Positions 7,515-30,645 of a DNA stretch of 37,841 nt are shown here, one piece after another. Source of the stretch: an uncultured Acidobacteriota bacterium. GTDB lineage: Bacteria > Acidobacteriota > UBA6911 > CAINFC01. The notes beneath the pieces were generated by a model that saw only the letters and a program-made list of their open reading frames with translations, had not been told where the DNA came from and did not search any database. Every line of letters starts with the position of its first letter. The stretch's first letter is position 1. A program made the translations under genes and the position numbers. The stretch spans positions 1 through 37,841 of the forward strand of contig CAINFC010000238.1 of assembly GCA_903847975.1 (NCBI GenBank). Reading direction: 5' to 3'.

Positions 7515-8318
7515 TCAAGGCAGATAGGGCTGGGGGCCGGTGTTCTCCACGAAACGCCGCAGACCCTCTTCCAGGGCCGGGCGTGTAGCCAGGTCGCAGA
7601 AGATTTCGATCTCCCTCGCCAGCTCTTCCCGGGGCAGTGTCTTGATAAACCGCTTGGCTTCCGCCCGCGTCCCGGCATCGAACTTGACCTGCTGGGCTGC
7701 CATACTGCGGGCTACGGCCAGGGCCTGACCTTCGGCGACCAGCTGGGACACCATTCCGATCGCCTGGGCGCGAGCCGCATTCATGCTTCGGCCGGTAAGC
7801 AGCAGATCCCGAACCAGGGCGTTGCCCAGATCCCTCTTCAAGCGCGGAATCCCCCCGAATCCGGGAATCAGCCCCAACCGCAGCTCCGGAAAGCAGAAGC
7901 GCGCCGTTTTGTCGGCGACAATCAGATCGCAGGCCAGAGCCAGCTCGAAACCGCCCCCGAAGGTGACGCCCTGCACTGCGGCGACCGTCATCAGGGGTGT
8001 CATGTCTATGGAGTTGATGACTCCATGTATTCTTTCCAGGAACTGCCGGATGCCCGAACGCCTTTCCTCCCGGGTCAATCCCTGAATGCCGCGCCAGAGC
8101 TCGCGGAGATCGGCTCCTGCCGAAAAGCCGGAACTCAGGCGGCTGTAGAGGATCAGCGCCGAGCAGCTGGCGGCCAGGTCGGGCAGGGCTCGGACGAAAT
8201 GCTCCAGCTCGGAAAGCATGGTGGTGCCGATTTCGTTGCACGGCAGATGGTGCAGACCGAGCTCGACGATTCCGCCCTGCAGTTCCCACGAAAGCGTTTG
8301 TCCCTGCCAGCCGTTCAT
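7515..8318 (-). CDS. Enoyl-CoA hydratase/isomerase family protein
   Basis: Crotonase-superfamily enzyme of 267 residues, cytoplasmic, probably hydrating or isomerising a 2-enoyl-CoA. The oxyanion-hole region FSAGADL (about 65-71) and GVTFGGGFELALACD (about 117-131) are present, and both general acid/base Glu of true hydratases are kept: E125 in GGGFE and E145 in FPE, 20 residues apart as in the rat enzyme (E144/E164). LGLIPGFGG follows. The ATG overlaps the stop of the acyl-CoA synthetase gene (ATGA at 8318-8315). It closes the five-gene reductase operon, so its substrate is likely a long-chain or unusual acyl-CoA handled by that operon; general beta-oxidation is the alternative, but no dehydrogenase or thiolase is present here. 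Confidence 0.88.
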   Translation of the reverse strand: MNGWQGQTLSWELQGGIVELGLHHLPCNEIGTTMLSELEHFVRALPDLAASCSALILYSRLSSGFSAGADLRELWRGIQGLTREERRSGIRQFLERIHGVINSIDMTPLMTVAAVQGVTFGGGFELALACDLIVADKTARFCFPELRLGLIPGFGGIPRLKRDLGNALVRDLLLTGRSMNAARAQAIGMVSQLVAEGQALAVARSMAAQQVKFDAGTRAEAKRFIKTLPREELAREIEIFCDLATRPALEEGLRRFVENTGPQPYLP

Positions 8319-10009
8319 AAAGCCTCTTTTCTCGCCCCGGCCGGGGGTCGGGAAGCGGAATACATTTCCTCTACCAGGGCCGCCCAGCGACGGAGAATCG
8401 AATCACGCTTCAGCTTTCCGTTGGCTGTCAGCAGACCGTTTTCTATGGTGAAAGATTCCGGCAGGCACCGGAAGGCTCGAATTCGCCTGTAATGCGGCAG
8501 GGATTCATTCAGTTTCGCCAGGGCGCTCTCCACGCTGCTTTCCTCCATCTCCCCCGTCAGGAGGACCGTGATAAAACTCCTCCCGTGCCCCACCAGCAAG
8601 GCCTGCCTGGCTCCGGGAATGGTTTTGAGCAGGGATTCCTCCAGGGGCTCCGGGGCAATGTTGTGCCCGGAGCTCAGGATCAGCAGGTTTTTGATGCGGC
8701 CGATAATCTGCCAGTTTCCACCCTCATCCACGGTCCCCTGGTCACCGGTGCGGAACCAGCCATCCAGAAAAGAGGCGGCCGTTTCCGCGGGCCGGCCCCA
8801 ATAGCCGGAAAAAATATGCGGCCCCCGGACCAGGATCTCATCCTGCGGACCGAGCTTCATCTCCGTTCCCTGAATAGCCGGCCCGGCCATGCCCGGAATC
8901 ACATGATCCGGATGGTCCATGGTACAGATGGCGGTCGTCTCCGTAAGACCGTAAACCTGCAGCACCCGTATGCCCATCCCCATGAAAAACTGCTGGGTCT
9001 CCAGAGCCAGAGGAGCGGATCCGCAGATCAGGGCGCGCAGGCCACCGCCCATTTTTTTACGGACTGCCTTGAAAATCAGCTGATCGGCAAGCACCTTCCA
9101 GAGCAGGTCACCCATCCGGGCGCGACCTTCTCTCTCCCGGGCCAGGGCAGTGAGTGCTTTCCGGAAGATGGCCAGGCCAAGGCCGCCGCGCTTTTGCACC
9201 GCTTCTTCCATGCCTTTCCGGACGCGCTCCAGGAGCACGGGGACATTCAAAAAATAATCGGGCGAAATCCGCGGAAGATCATCGGTAATGCGATTTAGAT
9301 CGGTGCACAGGCTGAGCCGGCTGCCCCGCAGAAGACTGGTGAGCATCAGGATCCAGGAGCCGGCAAAATTACAGGGCAGATAGTGGTAGACACGGTCCGG
9401 CCGGCTTCCCGATCCTCGCATCAGGGTGCTCAGCCGGTCGTCGGTACAGAAAAGCATGTGATCCAGGTTGGCAACGGTCAGAACCACTCCTTTGGCCTCA
9501 CCCGAGGTCCCGGAGGTGTAGATGATCGTGACTCCATCCGCACCCGGACGCCGGATCGTCCTGCCAAACCCGGCCGCAGCCGGCGGGGCACCGGAACCGG
9601 AGCTTTGAAAGGCCTCATCCAGCAGGATGGCATTGGATATATCGTCCAGGAAACCCGCCAGGCTCTGGCGCATGGCCTGGTCCTGGCAAAAAACCAGAGC
9701 GGGCCGGCAGTCCCGAATCATGGCGGCCAGCTCCGCAGGGGCCTGGCGCGCATACAGGGGAACAAAAAGAGCCCCGTGGGCCATGACCGCCAGGTTGACC
9801 GCCGTCCAGCGCAGGCTGTTGGGTGCAATCAGCACGCAGCGATCCCCCGGTTGGATCCCCTTCTCTTCCAGGATCAGACGGACCGAACGGACCAGCTCCA
9901 GGAGCTGCTTCCCCGACGCGGATCGTAGCTCTCCCTCCCGGACTTCCTCCTGAAATATACGGTCCGGTTCTTCCTCCAGGCGTTGCAGTATTTTTTCAAT
10001 GAAATTCAT
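8315..10009 (-). CDS. AMP-forming acyl-CoA synthetase
   Basis: ANL-superfamily ligase of 564 residues that activates a carboxylic acid, probably a fatty acid, with ATP and CoA. The P-loop motif TIIYTSGTSGEAKGVV (about 161-176) is complete. QVYGLTET (A5 region), GWFRTGDQG and GRIKNLLILSSGHNIAPEPLE (A7-A8 region) follow in order, and the C-terminal LTANGKLKRD carries the A10 catalytic Lys region. The shape matches long-chain acyl-CoA synthetases rather than acetyl-CoA synthetases. GGGGGA lies just before the ATG. It sits 34 bases after the pyruvyl transferase-like gene and overlaps the enoyl-CoA hydratase gene by 4 bases. It probably feeds acyl-CoA to the two reductases encoded first in the operon. 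Confidence 0.92.
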   Translation of the reverse strand: MNFIEKILQRLEEEPDRIFQEEVREGELRSASGKQLLELVRSVRLILEEKGIQPGDRCVLIAPNSLRWTAVNLAVMAHGALFVPLYARQAPAELAAMIRDCRPALVFCQDQAMRQSLAGFLDDISNAILLDEAFQSSGSGAPPAAAGFGRTIRRPGADGVTIIYTSGTSGEAKGVVLTVANLDHMLFCTDDRLSTLMRGSGSRPDRVYHYLPCNFAGSWILMLTSLLRGSRLSLCTDLNRITDDLPRISPDYFLNVPVLLERVRKGMEEAVQKRGGLGLAIFRKALTALAREREGRARMGDLLWKVLADQLIFKAVRKKMGGGLRALICGSAPLALETQQFFMGMGIRVLQVYGLTETTAICTMDHPDHVIPGMAGPAIQGTEMKLGPQDEILVRGPHIFSGYWGRPAETAASFLDGWFRTGDQGTVDEGGNWQIIGRIKNLLILSSGHNIAPEPLEESLLKTIPGARQALLVGHGRSFITVLLTGEMEESSVESALAKLNESLPHYRRIRAFRCLPESFTIENGLLTANGKLKRDSILRRWAALVEEMYSASRPPAGARKEAL

Positions 10010-10043
10010 GGTTCCCCCGATCTACCTCTTTTGGGCCGGGCGA

Positions 10044-11456
<1,413 letters not shown>

Positions 11457-11460
11457 TCCG

Positions 11461-12591
11461 CTACCCTTCCTTTTTCTGCGGCCACGGCACGTGCGGAAAT
11501 TGAAAATTGTTTTCCAGGCTGAATTGCAACAGAGGGTAACAATATTCCGTGAACGGCTTCGGGGCATGCCCCAGTTCGGCTACCACCCGGCGATTGTCGA
11601 AGACGGTGTTCCAGGTGAGATACGGCATGAAAACCTTCATGAGCGAAGCAAGCCGGCTGATTCCCAGCGACCTTCGCGCAGCCAGAAAATCGACCAGGGA
11701 AACGAACGGTTTTTCCGTGGAGGGTAGAAACAAGGGAGGGCGCCGGTTTTGTTTCTGCGCCAGAACCCCGGTCAGCTGCCGATAGGTCGGGGACTCGGCA
11801 CCCGAAGAAAGGTGAAACAACCGGACTCCGGGGGTGCGGTCCAGATGAAGCCGGGCGATGGCCTCTGCGACGAAATCCACGTTGACGATATCCACCCGGT
11901 CGTCGGGGCGCAAGGGCAGGAAAGGCAGCCGGGCCAGGAATACAAAGGCCCGCACCATGTCGAACTGAGTGGTCCGGCCGTGTCGGCTGTCCCCCAGAAC
12001 AATGCTGGGACGGAAAATATTGATCGGAATTCCGGCCAGCAGCTCCTGAATCATATGCTCGCAGTATTTCTTGGTCCGGGCGTAGGGATCGTAATCCGAG
12101 CGCTCCCAGTCGACCGCTTCCGCTTCCTGCACGACCTGGTCCTGGCGCTGCCCGGCCACCGCAACGGTGCTTACATGGCTAAAGCGCTCCAGTCCGTGAT
12201 CCTGGCGGGCTCTCATGGCTAGCTGGACCATTTCCAGCGTGCCGCGCAGATTGATATTCAGGCAGGACTTTTCCGAGCGGCGGTTGAGCGAAGCGGCGCA
12301 ATGAATGACCGAGCCGGTGGTGCGCACCAGTTCCCGATAGGCCTCTTCTTCCAGGCCGAAGCGGGAGGAGGTCAGATCCCCGAGGAAAGTGTGGACCCGG
12401 GTTTCCATCCAGTGGCGAAAAAGAGGAAAATCCACGTGCAGCTGCCAGGCGTGCCAGAGACGCTCCCAGGCCTCCTGGCGGTTACGGGCCCGGACCAGAA
12501 GATTCAGATTTCCTTCCGGGGAAAAGGTAAGCAGGTTCACTGCGGCGTGCGCGCCGATATACCCGGTAGATCCGGTCAGGAAGATGTTCAT
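11461..12591 (-). CDS. NAD(P)-dependent SDR, fatty acyl-CoA reductase-like
   Basis: Extended short-chain dehydrogenase of 376 residues with the male-sterility/NAD_binding_4 look of fatty acyl-CoA and thioester reductases. The nucleotide loop is GSTGYIGAH (7-15), followed by [12 protein letters not shown] (substrate-side Asp), VIHCAASLN, and the active-site pair Y170-A-R-T-K174 (YxxxK). [10 protein letters not shown] and a late [13 protein letters not shown] stretch fit this group. ATG 12591 overlaps the stop of the upstream reductase (ATGA), so the two are translationally coupled and may act in series or as a complex. The longer frame would add 58 residues that only repeat upstream coding sequence in another frame, so I reject it. 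NAD epimerase activity on a sugar nucleotide is the main alternative. Confidence 0.8.
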
Positions 12592-14966
12592 AACGGGGAA
12601 GGACCCTCCGAGGGCGTCCGGGCCGGGGACGGCAAAGACTCGCCGCCGGGCTCCGCATCCAGCCGGAAGGATCGGTTGCGCCTGTGCTCCAGCGGGCGCT
12701 GCTCGATGAGCGGGTAGCACCATTTGCGCAGCGCCGGCACGTGAATGTTGATCCAGTAATCCCACCAGTCAAAACCGTAAACGTCATACAGAAAGGCCTG
12801 GCGCTCTTCGGCAGGGAGGGCTGCCGACAGGAATTCCACGTGGTCCGACTCGAAGATATGCTGGTTGTGCAGAATGAAGGGCTCGTAAAGCTCCACGATC
12901 GCCTCAACCCTTTCCAGTCCCCTTTCCTTGCGGATCAGGCTTTTCTGAAGGGAGGGCACCGCCTGGCTGAGATGGCGGACCGACCGTATCAGGGCCTTCT
13001 GGCGGGGTACGGACAGGACCTGGTAGCGGGTTTTGGAGACGGAAATGGTATCGAATCGGGCGCGCAGCCAATACTCCAGCCCTTCCTGGGCCCGGTAATG
13101 CTTGCGGTGCGCCAGCCCGGTCAGCTCGATCGAGCGTCGCATGTTGCAGGGGTTTTTGGCCGAGGAGGCCAGTTGGTACACCCTCTGGTGGCACCGGGTC
13201 ACCAGCGCCGCGGCGATCAGAGTCATCCCGCGGCACACCAGGTCGACGGGAACCATGTCGAGGCATTTGTTTTCGTCGGAAGGCAGCTGCCGGAAATAGG
13301 TCCCCAGCAGGTAGGAAAGAGGGGCTGAGGTGTTGACGCCTTCGTTCCAGCCGGAGAAGGGCTGCCCGGTGGAAGTTTCCACTATGCTGGGCCGGACGAC
13401 GGCAATGGGCAGATCCGGTGCTCTTTCGGCGATCAGGGACTCCGCCAGGCTTTTAGTATAGGTATAAATATTGGGCCACCCCCAGTGCTGGGCACGCTGC
13501 AAGCCCAGATCGACCAGCTTTTGGCGGAACCAGCGCTGCCGCCCTTTTCGCAGCTGCACCTCCAGAGCAGAACCCTCGAGGGCAGCTTCTCCGGTCTTGC
13601 GCTCCTTAAGCTGCTCGATAATCTCCCGGGTGGCAGCTTCCCCGTCGGCCTGCCCTTCGAGATCGGTGATCCGGGAATAGACATCCTTCAGCTCCTGCTC
13701 TACATCGAATTCCGGCATGACCTTCGGGGTGTAGTTCCGTTCGGATATCTCGGCAATGCGCCCGTTCTTCATCCCGGCCACAAAACAGGTAGACAAATGC
13801 ATAAGACCCGCGCGGCGGCAGCGGCGAAGGAATTCGACCGCCCGCAGAGGCGCTTCCACATTGGCCGACAGGGCACTGCGCAAATCGGGATTAAAATCGG
13901 TCAGACCCGAACTGTTCACGATCAGGTCCAGATCCCGGATCAGCGTCTGCTGCCGGTCTTCCGAGAGGCCCAGGTCCTCCCGGGTAAGGTCCCCTTCCAG
14001 AATTTCGATCTTCTGCTGAAGGAAGGCCGGGAGCGATTCGCCGTATTTCTCAAAAAGGGAATCGAAAACCGGCGATTCCTCCACCATTTTTTCAAAGCGC
14101 CGCAGTGCGGAAGCGGACCGCTGCCTGCGGATGAGCAGATAGATTTTCCCGATTTCCGGAAGATCCTCAAGAAGCTGGACCAGCCACACTTTTCCGATAA
14201 ATCCGGTGACCCCGATGAGCAGAATATTTTTACCTGCCAGGTTTCCCTTGACGGAAAAAGGATCGGGCGAGCCGCCGGCCGAAAAATCGACGGCCGGGTA
14301 AGAAATCAGACCCGTGTCGCGCCGGGCAGGGATGCTGCACTCCAGCAGCTCAGGAAGCTCGAAAGGAAAGCCCAGATCCCGGTGGAGTTCTTCGTCCGTC
14401 AGGCGCCCGTCCGGCTTTCGCCGGCGGATCCGCGCAAACAGTCCGCGCGGACGCACGACAGGCCCAACCAGGCGACCGGTGGCCAGACCGTCACGGAAGT
14501 CCAGGCGGTTGGCCAGAAGTTCCTTGACACCCAGATGCACAGCCAGAGGACGCATGACATGCTCCAGGCCCTGGCTGACCAGAACAATCCTTTCCCCCAG
14601 GCTCAGCCGCTGTTTCAGGCACTCGATCCCCTGGGCCCGGAGGTGAGGCTGCATATTATATTGGAAATATTCCTCCCCGAGAAGATCGAGCCGGTCCCGG
14701 CTGATTCCCCGGAGCAGCAGATGCAGCAGGCGGGTGGCAAAAGACCGGCTGCCGGCATAAAGCAGCGGTCGGAAGAGAGCAGACACAAAGAGCAGACCTC
14801 GACGGATCCACCGTTCCGTAAAGCTTTGCGCGTTCCAGGTGAAAAAAGCAACCGGGCGGACTGCACTCAGGTTCAGCAGGCTGCCCTCCACCCTCCAGTA
14901 GACAGGCTTACCCGAGGCGCCCTGGGATACGCCCTGAGGTTCCGAATGAGAAAGCCGGTGGTTCAA
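12588..14966 (-). CDS. Fatty acyl-CoA reductase with degenerate N-terminal HAD domain
   Basis: A 792-residue fusion. Residues about 20-215 resemble a HAD-IB phosphatase: [11 protein letters not shown] (22-32) lines up with the usual FDVEGTLL motif, but the nucleophile Asp is replaced by Arg25, and no motif-IV acidic pair is evident; only the motif-II-like [18 protein letters not shown] (129-146) is well kept. Residues about 246-600 are an NAD_binding_4 reductase: GVTGFIG (252-258), [19 protein letters not shown], and Y501-T-Y-T-K505 as YxxxK. The C-terminal 190 residues resemble the sterile-type extension. The predicted reaction is NADPH reduction of acyl-CoA to aldehyde or alcohol. The start is TTG 14966: AGGGG lies 7 bases upstream and an in-frame TAA lies a few codons further upstream. 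It leads the operon; the spacer before it (14967-15067) has a TTGACT (15047-15042) but no clear -10. Confidence 0.82.
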
Positions 14967-15919: not shown

Positions 15920-15976
15920 ATGCCGACAACCACCGTCAAGGAAGCCGATCCCGACCCGGTCCTAACCCGACTATGA
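15920..15976 (+). CDS. Possible 18-residue leader ORF coupled to the radical SAM gene
   Basis: ATG at 15920 opens an 18-codon frame (MPTTTVKEADPDPVLTRL) that ends at TGA 15974-15976, overlapping the ATG of the radical SAM gene at 15973. The radical SAM gene itself has no Shine-Dalgarno at a normal distance; AAGGAAG lies about 27 bases upstream, inside this ORF. With the -10 ending at 15913 the ORF may start at the 5' end of the message. A role in translational coupling is plausible, but nothing proves that it is translated. Confidence 0.35.
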   Translation: MPTTTVKEADPDPVLTRL

Positions 15977-17343
15977 TGAAAATCTCATTCCTGCAGATCA
16001 AGGATCCTGTCGATGTGGACTATCACGCACCGCTCAGTTTCGGATACCTAAAGTCATACCTGGACGCTTTCCATTCCGGACAACTTTCGCTCTGTATGGA
16101 GACCCGGCTGGAAGAAGCCCTGCAATCGGAGCCGGATGTACTGGGAATTTCCTGTTACAGCCAGGACTTCCTGGACGCAATCGCCGCCTGCAGGAAAGCA
16201 AAGGAGGCCGGTGTCCCCTGGGTTGTTCTCGGCGGAATGCACATAACCGCATACCCGGAAATGCTTCCGGATTCTGCCGATGTGGGGGTCATCGGAGAAG
16301 GAGAAGAAACTTTCAGCGAACTCCTGAAGCATATTTCCTCCGGGACCGGCAGGACAGGAGAACTGAGCAGGATTCAAGGGATCGTTTTTCGGGAGGACAA
16401 CGGACGGATTCAAATCACCCCGGCCAGATCTGTCCTCTACGATCTGGACCGGCTCCCGGTACCCGATCGGAAATTCATCCAGCAGGAACCAGGACAGATC
16501 CCCCACCTGTTCACCTCCCGCGGTTGCCCCTACCGGTGCTCCTTCTGTTCTTCCGCTCACCTTTCGCCGCACTTCCGGCTCCACGGCGCCTCTCGAATCC
16601 GGGAGGAGATCCGATTGATTCGAGCGGAATTTCCCGAAACGCGCAGCCTGTTTATCTGGGATAATCTTTTTATCGCCAATCGAAGGCGCCTTGCCGAGCT
16701 TTTCCAGCTCCTCCGGGAAGAGCCCTTCTTCCAGGACCTCTCCCTGGCCGTAGCTGTGCGGGCCGAACTGGTGGATGAGGAACTTTGCCTTCTTTTGAAG
16801 CAGCTCCATGTTACCCACGCCGGCCTGGGCATGGAATCCGGCACCGATAAGATTCTGAAAATGCTGAAGGCCCCCAACTCGAGCGTGGCGCGAAACCAGG
16901 CGGCATTGGATCAGCTGCACCGGCATGGCATTCAGTCCATTTGCAGCTTCATTGTCGGCCACTTTGATGAAACCGAATCCGATGTTCTGGCCACCTATAA
17001 TTTTCTGCTGGAGAATTACGGCCAGGGGAAAATAAGCGGCCACGACATGAATATTCTGACTCCTCTGCCCAAAACTCCTCTCTGGGATTGGGCCCGGAAG
17101 CATGGGTACGTAACCGAGGACAACTTCGCCTGGAACCGGCTGCGCTATGCCGCGGTGCGGTCCAACAATCTGAACGGGGACATCCGGCAGTGGGCGGAAG
17201 GAAGGGCGCGCAATCAGAGCATCTACCTGAACGGGCACCATATCCCGCTGGAGCGCATGTACGAGATTATTTCCTTATGCGAGGGAAAGATCGATTCGCG
17301 GGATTTCTCCCTGGTGGATTCTGCGGGAATGGCCCGCGGGTAA
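15973..17343 (+). CDS. B12-binding-domain radical SAM protein
   Basis: A 456-residue radical SAM enzyme with an N-terminal cobalamin-binding-like domain. Residues about 1-125 form the Rossmann-like part (PDVLGISCYSQDF, WVVLGGMHITAYPEMLPD, VGVIGEGEETF), the arrangement seen in methyltransferases and related enzymes, although the classic DxHxxG motif is not evident, so B12 binding itself is uncertain. The 4Fe-4S site is C185-P-Y-R-C189-S-F-C192 (CxxxCxxC), preceded by TSRG. LGMESGTDKILKML and the C-terminal half complete the Elp3/MiaB-like barrel. Two Met codons stand in tandem at the start, and a short upstream ORF overlaps it. It diverges from the response regulator and converges with the GT-C-like gene, so no partner identifies the substrate. 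Confidence 0.85.
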   Translation: MMKISFLQIKDPVDVDYHAPLSFGYLKSYLDAFHSGQLSLCMETRLEEALQSEPDVLGISCYSQDFLDAIAACRKAKEAGVPWVVLGGMHITAYPEMLPDSADVGVIGEGEETFSELLKHISSGTGRTGELSRIQGIVFREDNGRIQITPARSVLYDLDRLPVPDRKFIQQEPGQIPHLFTSRGCPYRCSFCSSAHLSPHFRLHGASRIREEIRLIRAEFPETRSLFIWDNLFIANRRRLAELFQLLREEPFFQDLSLAVAVRAELVDEELCLLLKQLHVTHAGLGMESGTDKILKMLKAPNSSVARNQAALDQLHRHGIQSICSFIVGHFDETESDVLATYNFLLENYGQGKISGHDMNILTPLPKTPLWDWARKHGYVTEDNFAWNRLRYAAVRSNNLNGDIRQWAEGRARNQSIYLNGHHIPLERMYEIISLCEGKIDSRDFSLVDSAGMARG

Positions 17344-17352
17344 TCACCTCGG

Positions 17353-19002
17353 TCAGGGACGGTGCCAGCGCACGGCTGGCTCGGAAAGAGGCGAAATTCG
17401 CAGCCGGTCGCTGTAGGTGATCCAGCCTTGCGGGGAATCGTACCTCAGGCGAACGTCGAAATCGTCCGGGCTGCGGTTGCGCAGTCGGCCGCGGGGCGGA
17501 AGCTCCCAAAACCCTCTGCCGGTGAGGAACAGGTACCGCCCTTCCCGATATGGGCCCGCTTCCCACTCGATCCACCCTTCGGAAGCGTCAAAGCGCAAAT
17601 TCAGAGATAACCTCCGGTCCTCCAGCCTGGACTTCCAGTCGGCGTATTTCAACCGGGCCTCCTCCTCCCCGCGTTTCATGGCGCCGGCAGCGGGATCGTA
17701 CACCCAAAGAGGCGCCCTCTCTTCCAGGATCGGCAGGAGATCGCTTTCGTCGAGACAGGCAGGCCCGGCCATGAAATCGGGCGATTCCTCTTTTTTCATT
17801 TGGAAGAGTTCGTGCACATACCAGTAATTCCTGGACAGCCGGGGGCTCAGCCAGATCGTCTCCTGGCCGGAACTAGACCAGAGGAACCTGCCCTGGACAT
17901 CGAATTCGGCATGCAGCGGCGCCCAGCGCTTCCGCGTCTGATCGAACTTGTGGCCGGCGCCGAAACCCGCCAGCAGGAACAAGGCGGCGGCAAGCCAATG
18001 GGACTTCGGGAAAAGAAGGGAAAGCCGGCTCAGACCGACACACAAGGCAGCCACAGCGGCCCACCATACACCAAAGAAATACCGGTCCACTTCTCCGATG
18101 ATGCCGGCTATGGGAAGAAGCGGGGCGTAAAGGGCTCCCGCCGTCAGGACGACCGCTGGAATATGTTGGGGAAAACGCAGAACCAGAATAACCAGAAAGG
18201 AAAGAAAAAGCAGCAGGACGGGAATCGCAAGGGTTCCGAAGAAATACTCCCAGGTGGAGAGGAGCAACGACAGGGCCCTGGCGTAATCGATTTCCAAACC
18301 CATGCCTCCCAGGATAGAGCCCAACATGAAAAAACGCCAGGGAACATACAGTGCCAAAACAGTTAAGACCGGCACGAGGCGGCGCCCTTTTTCATGAAAA
18401 CTGCCGGAATTCAGAAAAGGCAAAAGAACCACAAGCGGCACATAGATTTCCTTGTAACTGACCGCCAGGAAATAAAAGAATGCGGCCAGGATGGATTCCT
18501 GGTACCGCTTCCGGACCACAGACTCCTGGTAGAAATAAATCGCTAAAAGTGCGAACAACAATCCCTCCAGGTAGTGGCGGCACATCAGCTGATGACTGAC
18601 AATGGCTACGGGAGACCCTAAAATCCACAGCGCGCCTCCCAGCCAGGCCCAGCAAGGCTCTACCCAGCGGTATAAAAGGAGGACGGTGGCCAGGCTAGCC
18701 AGCCAAATCCCCAGCAGCTGGTGCCAATAAAAGAAGCGCGGCTCGAGGCCGAACAGCATGGAATCCAGAAGAAAAGACACGGCCAGCATCGGATTGATGT
18801 TAAACGATTCGAACCGCCAGAGGGAGGCCGGATTAAAAAAATAATCGGCGATTCTGTACCCGTTCGCGTAATTCAGAACCGCCGGGTCGTCATAGCGCCA
18901 GAAACCGGTCCATGCATCCCCGTGGCCTGCATAAATCAAAGCGGCCAGGCCCAGGCTAAGAAAGCAGCCACCCGCTGCGTGCCGTACCTTCCGGGAAATC
19001 AT
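17353..19002 (-). CDS. Polytopic membrane protein, GT-C glycosyltransferase-like
   Basis: A 549-residue integral membrane protein with about eleven hydrophobic segments in the first 350 residues and a soluble C-terminal domain of about 200 residues. The first loop carries FWRYDDPAVLNY, with D38-D39 in the place where GT-C glycosyltransferases (lipid-phosphate-sugar users such as PMT/ArnT relatives) have their acidic pair. SYKEIYVPLVVLLPFL and a Tyr/Phe-rich middle are also typical. I do not recognise a more specific family. Its ATG lies directly after the stop of the secreted glycosidase-like gene upstream, so the two are cotranscribed. A role in transferring a sugar outside the membrane is an inference from topology and the acidic pair. 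Confidence 0.55.
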   Translation of the reverse strand: MISRKVRHAAGGCFLSLGLAALIYAGHGDAWTGFWRYDDPAVLNYANGYRIADYFFNPASLWRFESFNINPMLAVSFLLDSMLFGLEPRFFYWHQLLGIWLASLATVLLLYRWVEPCWAWLGGALWILGSPVAIVSHQLMCRHYLEGLLFALLAIYFYQESVVRKRYQESILAAFFYFLAVSYKEIYVPLVVLLPFLNSGSFHEKGRRLVPVLTVLALYVPWRFFMLGSILGGMGLEIDYARALSLLLSTWEYFFGTLAIPVLLLFLSFLVILVLRFPQHIPAVVLTAGALYAPLLPIAGIIGEVDRYFFGVWWAAVAALCVGLSRLSLLFPKSHWLAAALFLLAGFGAGHKFDQTRKRWAPLHAEFDVQGRFLWSSSGQETIWLSPRLSRNYWYVHELFQMKKEESPDFMAGPACLDESDLLPILEERAPLWVYDPAAGAMKRGEEEARLKYADWKSRLEDRRLSLNLRFDASEGWIEWEAGPYREGRYLFLTGRGFWELPPRGRLRNRSPDDFDVRLRYDSPQGWITYSDRLRISPLSEPAVRWHRP

Positions 19003-28871: not shown

Positions 28872-28921
28872 TGCCGGAACCAACAAAGAGCGGATGGAAC
28901 TGAAACCGGAATGGAGTGAGG

Positions 28922-30595
28922 ATGGATTCCAATTTATTTGCCACAAAATCGATCGAGAAACTGGTGGGCGACGTAGAGCACGGCAGCAAAGCGCTGCGGC
29001 GCTCCCTGAGCGCCTTTGATCTGACTCTGCTGGGAATCGGCGCCATCATCGGCACCGGAATTTTCGTGCTCACCGGGACGGCGGCCGCCAACCAGGCCGG
29101 ACCCGCCATCGTGATTTCCTACCTGGCGGCCGGATTGGCCTGCGCTTTCGCCGGACTCTGCTACGCGGAATTTGCGGCCATGATCCCCATTGCCGGCAGC
29201 GCCTACACCTATGCATACGCCACGCTGGGCGAGGTGTTTGCCTGGATGATCGGCTGGGATCTGATCCTCGAGTACGCCGTTGGCTCCATGACGGTGGCCA
29301 TCGGCTGGAGCGGATATTTCCAGAGGATTCTGGCGGGATTCGGGCTGCCCCTGCCGGCCTGGATGAGTGCGGCTCCTACAGCGGCCCCCGGAGCAGTGGT
29401 GAACCTGCCGGCCGTCATCATCGTCCTGATTATCACGGTTATCCTGGTGATCGGAATTCGGGAAAGCGCGCGGTTTAACGCCATCATGGTAGCCATCAAG
29501 TTTGTGGCCATCCTTTTTTTCATTTCGGTCGGCTGCTTTTACGTCAAGCCGGAGAACTGGTCCCCCTTTGCTCCCTATGGCTGGCCGGGGATCATGGCTG
29601 CGGGAGCGGTGGTCTTTTTTGCCTATATCGGCTTTGATGCCGTATCGACCACAGCGGAGGAGGCTAAAAATCCGCAGCGGGATCTTCCGATCGGGATCAT
29701 CGCTTCCCTGCTGATCTGCACCGCCCTCTACCTGGCCGTGTCCGCCATCCTCACCGGGATCGTGCCGGTAGTCGGTCTGAAAACCAACGTTCAGTTCCTC
29801 AACGCGCCGGTCGCTTACGTCCTCGCCGTGATCCACCAGGACTGGGCGGCCGGCCTGGTTTCCGCGGGTGCCGTGGCGGGCATCACCAGCGTCCTGCTGG
29901 TGATGCTGCTGAGCCAGCCCCGGATTTTCTTCTCCATGAGCCGGGATCAGCTGCTGCCGGCCGGGGTAAGCAAGGTTCATCCACGCTTCGGAACCCCCTA
30001 TATCACCACCATTATTACCGGGCTGGTCGTGGCGACCTTTGCCGGTCTGCTGCGCATTGATGTCGTCGGGGAAATGACCAGCATTGGTACGCTTTTTGCG
30101 TTCGTTGTGGTCTGCCTGGCAGTCATTGTCCTGAGGATCAAGCGCCCCGATGCCCACCGGCCTTTCAAGGTTTCCGGGGGCTTTCTGTTCCCGGTCCTGG
30201 GGACCCTTTCCTGCATCTATCTTATGGCCAGTCTCCCGGTGATCACCTGGGTTCGGTTCCTGGTCTGGCTCGATCTGGGTATGCTGATCTACTGGTTCTA
30301 CGGCAGGACCCACAGTCCGCTGATCAATCCGGAAGAAAACCGTACCCGGACCATCGGGCAGTCGTTCGCCAATTTCGTACAGTTCCTGGGGTCGCTGGTA
30401 GTTTTCAACGGCTTCTGCATGACCATGCTCGGGTATTTGACCGAATGGGAAATTACCACGGAAAATTCGGCGAAGTGGCATGAGATTTACGTTACCCCTC
30501 AAACCGCGGACACTTTCGGCCTGATGATTCTGGGTTCGGGAATAGCCCTCTTTGCTGTCGGCTGGGGGCTCAGGAAACTTACGGCTATGAAATAA
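28922..30595 (+). CDS. APC-family amino-acid permease
   Basis: A 557-residue polytopic transporter of the amino acid-polyamine-organocation superfamily, closest in pattern to the cationic amino acid transporter (CAT/YfnA) branch. The first helix carries the substrate-binding GIGAIIGTGIFVLTG, followed by AGPAIVISYLAAGLACAFAGLCYAEFAAMIP and ISMSRD-like SMSRDQLLP between later helices. About 12-14 helices are visible, with a long hydrophilic stretch near residue 470. ATG 28922 is chosen because GGAG stands 5 bases upstream, while the GTG at 28916 would overlap that site. It diverges from the iorB operon and could import amino acids that feed it; that link is inferred. Confidence 0.9.
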   Translation: MDSNLFATKSIEKLVGDVEHGSKALRRSLSAFDLTLLGIGAIIGTGIFVLTGTAAANQAGPAIVISYLAAGLACAFAGLCYAEFAAMIPIAGSAYTYAYATLGEVFAWMIGWDLILEYAVGSMTVAIGWSGYFQRILAGFGLPLPAWMSAAPTAAPGAVVNLPAVIIVLIITVILVIGIRESARFNAIMVAIKFVAILFFISVGCFYVKPENWSPFAPYGWPGIMAAGAVVFFAYIGFDAVSTTAEEAKNPQRDLPIGIIASLLICTALYLAVSAILTGIVPVVGLKTNVQFLNAPVAYVLAVIHQDWAAGLVSAGAVAGITSVLLVMLLSQPRIFFSMSRDQLLPAGVSKVHPRFGTPYITTIITGLVVATFAGLLRIDVVGEMTSIGTLFAFVVVCLAVIVLRIKRPDAHRPFKVSGGFLFPVLGTLSCIYLMASLPVITWVRFLVWLDLGMLIYWFYGRTHSPLINPEENRTRTIGQSFANFVQFLGSLVVFNGFCMTMLGYLTEWEITTENSAKWHEIYVTPQTADTFGLMILGSGIALFAVGWGLRKLTAMK

Positions 30596-30645
30596 AATCC
30601 CCGGGGGAAAGGGGCCTTTCGCAGGCTTCCGCAAATTCTCTTCAC

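What the first reader, a model, noticed from the sequence alone, without database searches (positions are those of the whole stretch)
7515..14966. Five-gene fatty acyl reductase operon with a pyruvyl transferase: possible new lipid or glycolipid pathway
The sequence shows five minus-strand genes with 4-base overlaps or short gaps: degenerate-HAD acyl-CoA reductase, a second reductase-like SDR, a PF04230 pyruvyl transferase-like protein, an AMP-forming acyl-CoA synthetase and an enoyl-CoA hydratase with both catalytic Glu. Family knowledge: acyl-CoA reductases give fatty aldehydes or alcohols, used in wax esters, ether lipids (the myxobacterial elb locus includes a reductase-like multidomain enzyme) and glycolipids; Acidobacteriota are known for ether-bound lipids. 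Inference: the operon activates and reduces a fatty acid and puts it on a sugar- or pyruvate-bearing product. The combination with a pyruvyl transferase is not one I know.
Basis: partly seen in the sequence, partly recalled or inferred. Interest (0 to 1): 0.65.

Follow-up and report, generated by a model that had tools for sequence, protein, structure and literature searches.

The report
Nine-gene acidobacterial fatty-alcohol lipid pathway
Five linked genes in this soil-type bacterium are half of an undescribed nine-gene set, kept together across many Acidobacteriota, that looks built to turn a fatty acid into an alcohol and join it to a three-carbon unit to make an unusual membrane lipid, possibly an ether lipid.

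Summary
In detail: five intact minus-strand genes (7515-14966, gaps -4, +4, +34, -4) encode a degenerate-HAD/fatty acyl reductase, a thioester-reductase-like SDR, a PF04230 pyruvyltransferase-like protein, an acyl-AMP ligase and a crotonase with both catalytic Glu. They are half of a larger unit. In dozens of genomes the cluster runs HADFAR-SDR-PPT-ACS1-ECH-(KASIII)-ACP-ACS2-DAGK, sometimes with a PlsC acyltransferase; a Latescibacterota chromosome holds all nine genes in order within 11.2 kb. The window's genome keeps ACP-ACS2-DAGK-PlsC on another contig. In 147 genomes of one class, the pyruvyltransferase (19) and ACS2 (20) co-occur with one exception. So this is very probably a lipid pathway. 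I found no description of it. Best mechanism, mostly inferred: ACS2/ACP/HADFAR make a fatty alcohol; PPT joins it to PEP-derived pyruvate; ACS1, ECH and SDR turn that unit into an alkylglycerol; DAGK and PlsC finish a phospholipid. Against equating it with tetraether lipids: the Tes radical-SAM enzyme is near universal in Terriglobia, a large probable Solibacter-family group lacks the cluster, and a Ger/PlsA-type protein co-occurs rather than being replaced. The product is unproven; a pyruvate-ketal lipid remains possible.

The parts
12588..14966 (-). HADFAR: N-terminal degenerate HAD-IB-like domain plus fatty acyl(-CoA/-ACP) reductase (NAD_binding_4) with FAR C-terminal 'Sterile' region; TGFIGK and YTYTK active-site motifs intact
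   Evidence: Pfam; closest solved structure fatty acyl-CoA reductase 7eoz, E=5e-50; conservation of motifs in 72 orthologues
11461..12591 (-). SDR: stand-alone thioester-reductase-type NAD(P)-dependent reductase ([13 protein letters not shown])
   Evidence: Pfam NAD_binding_4; TIGR01746 thioester reductase, below its cut-off; closest solved structures MxaA, PKS and CAR reductase domains; ATGA overlap with HADFAR
10044..11456 (-). PPT: PF04230 pyruvyltransferase-like protein, 470 aa, predicted GT-B fold; R177, R347, H349 and R369 (numbering of the 471-residue query of A1/A2) invariant and equated by motif with the CsaB PEP-site residues
   Evidence: Pfam, TIGR03609 57.7 bits, alignments A1/A2, AlphaFold2 model pLDDT 93.7, Foldseek GT-B hits, CsaB residues from PMC10435577
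8315..10009 (-). ACS1: AMP-forming acyl-CoA/acyl-ACP ligase with intact P-loop and C-terminal lysine motifs
   Evidence: Pfam AMP-binding and AMP-binding_C_3, nearest NCBIfam FadD11, motif conservation in 79 orthologues
7515..8318 (-). ECH: crotonase/enoyl-CoA hydratase with both catalytic Glu (E125, E145); 4-base overlap with ACS1
   Evidence: Pfam ECH_1, conservation in 69 orthologues, orthologue present even where unlinked

Best explanation
The five genes are the first half of a nine-gene lipid pathway (HADFAR, SDR, PPT, ACS1, ECH; ACP, ACS2, DAGK, PlsC). Shown: the gene set, its order, its co-inheritance, and intact catalytic motifs. Inferred: ACS2 loads a fatty acid on the dedicated ACP and HADFAR reduces it to a fatty alcohol (ROH). 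PPT transfers an enolpyruvyl unit from PEP to ROH, giving 2-alkoxyacrylate. ACS1 makes its CoA (or ACP) thioester. ECH adds water across the double bond, as methacrylyl-CoA hydratase does to a 2-substituted acryloyl-CoA, giving 3-hydroxy-2-alkoxypropanoyl thioester. SDR reduces the thioester to the primary alcohol, yielding a 2-O-alkylglycerol. DAGK phosphorylates it and PlsC acylates it to an ether phosphatidic acid. The outer claim (a fatty alcohol is made and built into a polar, probably alkyl-ether, lipid with DAGK and PlsC as finishing enzymes) is firmer than the inner claim that PEP supplies the glycerol carbons (about 0.2).
For: Conserved order and strand in about 80 loci. All nine genes in order between 6495 and 17639 of a Latescibacterota locus (L081), largest gap 24 bp. 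The window genome carries the other four genes together, at 57-70% identity, on C160. In one class PPT+ 19/147 and ACS2+ 20/147 with one discordant genome, 87% complete and of a genus otherwise positive (Fisher 5e-23, not phylogeny-corrected). ECH is retained even when unlinked. All ligase, ACP serine, kinase, acyltransferase, reductase and crotonase motifs are conserved. CsaB PEP-binding residues have invariant counterparts by motif. The SDR resembles MxaA/CAR reductases. PF04230 enzymes are proposed to act on hydroxyls of alkyl chains in chitinimine biosynthesis (PMC13291983). The same kinds of part (FAR, ACS, ACP, acyltransferase, SDR, HAD) occur in the Elb ether-lipid system (PMC9131029). 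This scheme is the only one considered that gives each of the nine genes a step.
Against: No product is known. The enol-ether step has no precedent in PF04230 that I know; its characterised members form ketals. The predicted fold is generic GT-B, and no pyruvyltransferase is in the top 50 structural hits. Tes is present in 382/399 Terriglobia whether or not the cluster is, and 7 of 17 Tes-negative genomes carry the cluster marker, so neighbouring Tes genes prove nothing. A large family without a match (f66) is probably that of Solibacter, a proven tetraether producer. A Ger/PlsA-type DUF2229 protein occurs in the window genome and is commoner, not rarer, in cluster-bearing genomes (18/35 vs 6/45). 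PlsC is linked in only 9 fetched loci; many Terriglobia have VKOR and an esterase there instead. Amphipathicity of the PPT N-terminal helix is unexceptional.
Confidence: 0.45

Rival explanations
1. Pyruvate-ketal lipid: the pathway makes a fatty alcohol-based lipid with two free hydroxyls (for example an alkylglycerol or a 1,3-diol chain built with ECH/KASIII help), and PPT caps the diol with a cyclic pyruvate ketal, giving an anionic lipid.
For: Characterised PF04230 enzymes form ketals (PMC6801904); ChtnH is proposed to ketalise two hydroxyls of a long alkyl chain in a specialised lipid (PMC13291983); PEP-site residues conserved.
Against: Leaves the second acyl-AMP ligase, the thioester reductase and the hydratase without a clear role; PPT lies in the middle of the acyl-processing genes and is always retained.
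Confidence: 0.25
2. Dissociated Elb-type alkyl-ether pathway with PPT and ECH in accessory roles: ether bond formed by the FAR/ACS/ACP/acyltransferase set through the still unknown ElbD chemistry.
For: Elb parts (FAR1-like, ACS, ACP, AGPAT, NAD-epimerase-like SDR, HAD; PMC9131029) have same-type counterparts here; elbD-like clusters flanked by dehydratases occur in Acidobacteriota (PMC9426513).
Against: No multidomain ElbD; PPT and ECH are as strictly conserved as the reductases and so hardly accessory; the HAD domain here has lost its nucleophile whereas ElbB is a stand-alone HAD-family protein.
Confidence: 0.2
3. Pyruvylated glycolipid or fatty alcohol/wax ester pathway.
For: Pyruvylated glycolipids exist in mycobacteria (PMC6801904); FAR enzymes supply wax-ester alcohols.
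Against: No glycosyltransferase in the conserved same-strand unit; no wax synthase among the scanned neighbours; lipid kinase and PlsC point to phospholipid.
Confidence: 0.1

Closest known systems
Myxobacterial elb ether-lipid operon (ElbB, ElbD, ElbE; M. xanthus)
   Same: FAR-like, acyl-AMP ligase, ACP, AGPAT/PlsC, NAD-epimerase-like SDR and HAD-family parts
   Different: Here all parts are separate genes, HAD is fused to FAR and degenerate, and PPT, ECH, a second ligase and a lipid kinase are added; sequence relation to ElbD not tested
Ger/PlsA glycerol ester reductase (anaerobic alkyl-ether/plasmalogen route)
   Same: Would lead to the same class of product (glycerol alkyl ethers)
   Different: Different chemistry and families; no PlsA-type gene in the cluster; a DUF2229 protein occurs elsewhere in the same genome
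CsaB/Pvg1p/WcfO ketal-pyruvyltransferases (PF04230)
   Same: PPT passes the Pfam cut-off; counterparts of the CsaB PEP-site residues are invariant
   Different: Far below the CsaB equivalog cut-off (57.7 vs 213 bits); lipid rather than wall-polymer neighbourhood
ChtnH pyruvyl transferase of chitinimine biosynthesis (PMC13291983)
   Same: Pyruvyl transferase proposed to act on hydroxyls of a long alkyl chain in a specialised lipid
   Different: Works with PUFA-synthase/NRPS machinery; no FAR, ECH or lipid kinase partnership described in the passages read
Tes/Mss membrane-spanning lipid synthases
   Same: A Tes-like radical SAM gene lies upstream in 8 fetched loci; one matches 7tol at E=1.7e-60
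   Different: Tes is near universal in Terriglobia and independent of the cluster

Membership tests
Elb ether-lipid system | Single multidomain ElbD (FAR-ACS-ACP-AT) | tested here: not met
   Four separate genes at two loci in this genome
Elb ether-lipid system | FAR, ACS, ACP, PlsC, SDR and HAD-type proteins present as a set | tested here: met
   Pfam; ACP-ACS2-DAGK-PlsC on C160; HAD degenerate
Elb ether-lipid system | Sequence homology to ElbD/ElbE themselves | not tested
   No ElbD or ElbE sequence was at hand
Elb ether-lipid system | Product is an alkyl/vinyl ether lipid | not testable with these tools
   Needs lipidomics or genetics
PF04230 pyruvyltransferase | Pfam gathering score | tested here: met
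   36.4 vs 25.3 bits
PF04230 pyruvyltransferase | PEP-site residues (CsaB R148, R306, H308, K328) | tested here: inconclusive
   By motif and spacing they equate with R177, R347, H349, R369, invariant in A2 including 26-35% identical paralogues; K328 appears as Arg, and CsaB K328R is active; but no CsaB sequence was at hand for a direct alignment
CsaB equivalog (TIGR03609) | Curated cut-off 213 bits | tested here: not met
   57.7 bits
Fatty acyl reductase (FAR) | NAD_binding_4 with YxxxK plus FAR C-terminal domain | tested here: met
   NAD_binding_4 176 bits; Sterile 34.1 vs 35.4 cut-off (just under); Y501/K505 conserved; 7eoz E=5e-50 over both parts
Enoyl-CoA hydratase (crotonase) | Both catalytic Glu | tested here: met
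   E125 and E145 at least 95% conserved
Ger/PlsA ether pathway | DUF2229 activase-type protein encoded in the operon | tested here: not met
   None of the five operon proteins is of this kind; one DUF2229 protein is elsewhere in the genome, C309
Pyruvylated glycolipid loci | Glycosyltransferase in the conserved unit | tested here: not met
   None among same-strand conserved genes

The most novel reading that the evidence does not exclude
A new route to glycerol ether lipids in which the glycerol backbone is not taken from glycerol-3-phosphate or DHAP but built from phosphoenolpyruvate: enolpyruvyl transfer to a fatty alcohol, thioester activation, hydration and double reduction give 2-O-alkylglycerol, which is then phosphorylated and acylated.
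Probability: 0.2. Interest if true: 0.88.

Novelty: new variant of a known kind. Interest (0 to 1): 0.62.

Why it matters
How Acidobacteria form ether bonds in their membrane lipids is described as still unclear (PMC11868695), and such lipids underlie widely used palaeoclimate proxies. The marker of this set is present in 119 of 399 sampled Terriglobia genomes and its nine genes are now named, so a lipid comparison and a few enzyme assays can settle what it makes. If the PEP route is right, it would be a previously unknown way to build a glycerolipid backbone.

Tried and rejected
(1) Equating the cluster with tetraether/membrane-spanning lipids: a Tes-like gene beside 8 loci looked promising, but Tes is in 382/399 Terriglobia, so adjacency is not informative. 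(2) Complementarity with Ger/PlsA: the reverse was found, 18/35 vs 6/45. (3) A membrane-binding N-terminal helix in PPT as evidence for a lipid substrate: its hydrophobic moment is unexceptional, 32% of other windows in the protein score as high. (4) A PDB sequence match for PPT: none up to E=10; fold search gave only generic GT-B and similar enzymes in the top 50. (5) HADFAR model too weak to interpret, pLDDT 69. (7) Origin of the window copy: the PPT tree does not resolve it (long branch, polytomy). (8) Promoter and terminator scan of the region: promoter count at the level of shuffles; terminator-like sites exceed shuffles but lie mostly inside genes.

Full report
WHAT IS THERE. The five reported genes are real and intact: HADFAR 14966-12588, SDR 12591-11461, PPT 11456-10044, ACS1 10009-8315 and ECH 8318-7515, all minus strand, with gaps of -4, +4, +34 and -4 bases. 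Pfam assigns NAD_binding_4+HAD (+Sterile just under cut-off), NAD_binding_4, PS_pyruv_trans, AMP-binding and ECH_1. Upstream lies a response regulator gene (15691-15068) and downstream glgC (7253-5955); neither is conserved with the operon in other genomes. The window is the whole of contig C238 of an 8.13 Mb genome. Matched relatives show that the phylum is Acidobacteriota.

A LARGER UNIT. The PPT orthologue was found in 11 other genomes among 396 of the phylum at 62-69% identity, and 306 matching stretches turned up in a scan of 84,980 species genomes. Among the 80 fetched, all but one are Acidobacteriota records, many from soil, peat or groundwater, and one is a Latescibacterota chromosome. 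Neighbourhood clustering over 92 loci shows one order on one strand: HADFAR-SDR-PPT-ACS1-ECH-ACP-ACS2-DAGK. This is followed by a small unknown protein, VKOR and an esterase in many Terriglobia, or by a PlsC acyltransferase in others; a KASIII gene lies between ECH and ACP in one subgroup (families). In L081 (Latescibacterota) all nine genes HADFAR to PlsC lie in order between 6495 and 17639, largest gap 24 bp.

The window's genome has the second half elsewhere: ACP (70%), ACS2 (66%), DAGK (57%) and PlsC (61%) in a row on contig C160. The operon lies well inside contig C238, so this separation is not simply a contig break.

In 147 genomes of the Blastocatellia-like class, PPT is found in 19 and the ACS2 orthologue in 20. 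All 19 PPT+ genomes have ACS2; the one discordant genome is 87% complete and belongs to a genus otherwise positive (Fisher 5e-23, not corrected for phylogeny). Concordance holds when the genes lie on different contigs (G157, G388). ECH orthologues (63-67%) are present in all seven genomes tested, including those where ECH is not next to ACS1. This shared inheritance across unlinked loci is the strongest evidence that the proteins serve one pathway.

ENZYMES. Conservation over 10-91 orthologues keeps every catalytic motif: FAR TGFIGK and YxxxK; SDR TGxTGYxG and YxxxK; both ligases' P-loop and C-terminal lysine motifs; the ACP serine; DAGK GGDGT; PlsC HX4D and EGxR; ECH E125 and E145. HADFAR matches the solved fatty acyl-CoA reductase 7eoz over both parts at E=5e-50. 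SDR is nearest to thioester reductases (MxaA, PKS and CAR domains). PPT has a confident GT-B model (pLDDT 93.7; GT-B hits). R177, R347, H349 and R369 are invariant even against 26-35% identical paralogues; by motif and spacing they correspond to CsaB R148, R306, H308 and K328, the PEP-site residues of PMC10435577. No CsaB sequence was at hand for a direct alignment, so that equation is inference.

HOW IT MOST LIKELY WORKS. Shown: gene set, order, co-inheritance, intact active sites. Inferred: ACS2 and the dedicated ACP present a fatty acyl chain, and HADFAR reduces it to a fatty alcohol. PPT condenses the alcohol with PEP to an enolpyruvyl ether (2-alkoxyacrylate), ACS1 activates the new carboxylate, ECH hydrates the 2-substituted acryloyl thioester (methacrylyl-CoA hydratase is the precedent, from general knowledge), and SDR reduces the thioester to the alcohol (MxaA-type reductases reach alcohols, from general knowledge). 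The product, 2-O-alkylglycerol, is a plausible substrate for a DAGK-family kinase and then PlsC. This is the only scheme I found that gives all nine genes a step. The main rival is a pyruvate ketal on a lipid diol; a pyruvyl transferase is proposed to do this on an alkyl chain (PMC13291983).

LIMITS. Nothing here shows a product. Distribution does not support equating the cluster with tetraether lipids: Tes is almost universal in Terriglobia (382/399) while the cluster marker is in 119/399. The large family f66, probably Bryobacteraceae from its 9.5 Mb near-complete genomes (names are hidden), has no genome among the 119 matches, although its likely member Solibacter makes brGDGTs and is thought to use PlsA-like enzymes and Tes (PMC10087280). 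L095, titled Ca. Sulfopaludibacter, does carry the cluster. A DUF2229 (Ger/PlsA-type) protein exists in the window's genome and is commoner in cluster-bearing genomes, so the cluster does not stand in for that route.

KNOWN OR NEW. The nearest known kind is the myxobacterial elb system, whose ElbD unites FAR, ACS, ACP and acyltransferase beside an SDR and a HAD protein (PMC9131029); elbD-like clusters are reported in sponge Acidobacteriota (PMC9426513). The present set has those kinds of part as separate proteins and adds PPT, ECH, a second ligase and a lipid kinase. Literature searches found no description of it, but most subscription papers are not held.

Noticed in passing
G000:C148:28484-30073 (L010 8484-10073) and L010 9991-10917: A second PF04230-type protein in the same genome (35-36% identical to PPT) lies head to head with a patatin-like phospholipase gene: another lipid-linked pyruvyltransferase setting.
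   Followed up: partly
L012 4734-13425 (G000:C198 about 50.7-59.4 kb): Cluster with two ketoacyl synthases, a radical SAM protein, a thioester-reductase-like SDR, a GT4 glycosyltransferase and a methyltransferase: an uncharacterised type II fatty acid/polyketide-like locus in the same genome.
   Followed up: no
G000:C56:32200-33630 (L132 9137-10798) and Terriglobia genomes: A homologue of the Tes-like tetraether synthase is in the window's genome, and Tes-like genes are in 382 of 399 Terriglobia: near-universal membrane-spanning lipid potential in that class.
   Followed up: partly
G000:C309:5175-5831: DUF2229 (Ger/PlsA-type) protein in the window's genome; in 80 genomes it is positively associated with the nine-gene cluster (18/35 vs 6/45), for no known reason.
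   Followed up: partly
window 15973-17343: B12-binding radical SAM protein on the plus strand, 1 kb upstream of the operon and divergent from it; not conserved beside the operon elsewhere.
   Followed up: no
L025 14355-15797: Myo-inositol-1-phosphate synthase gene directly upstream of the cluster and on the same strand in one Acidobacteriaceae MAG, hinting at an inositol head group there.
   Followed up: no
L025 2623-3533 and orthologues in 32-40 loci: VKOR-family protein and a 142-aa protein without any Pfam match inserted between DAGK and the esterase in many Terriglobia versions of the cluster.
   Followed up: no
window 17353-19002 and 28934-30634: Two long open frames (549 and 566 aa) with no Pfam match; the second overlaps a long plus-strand ORF (28916-30595), so one of the two may be spurious.
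   Followed up: no
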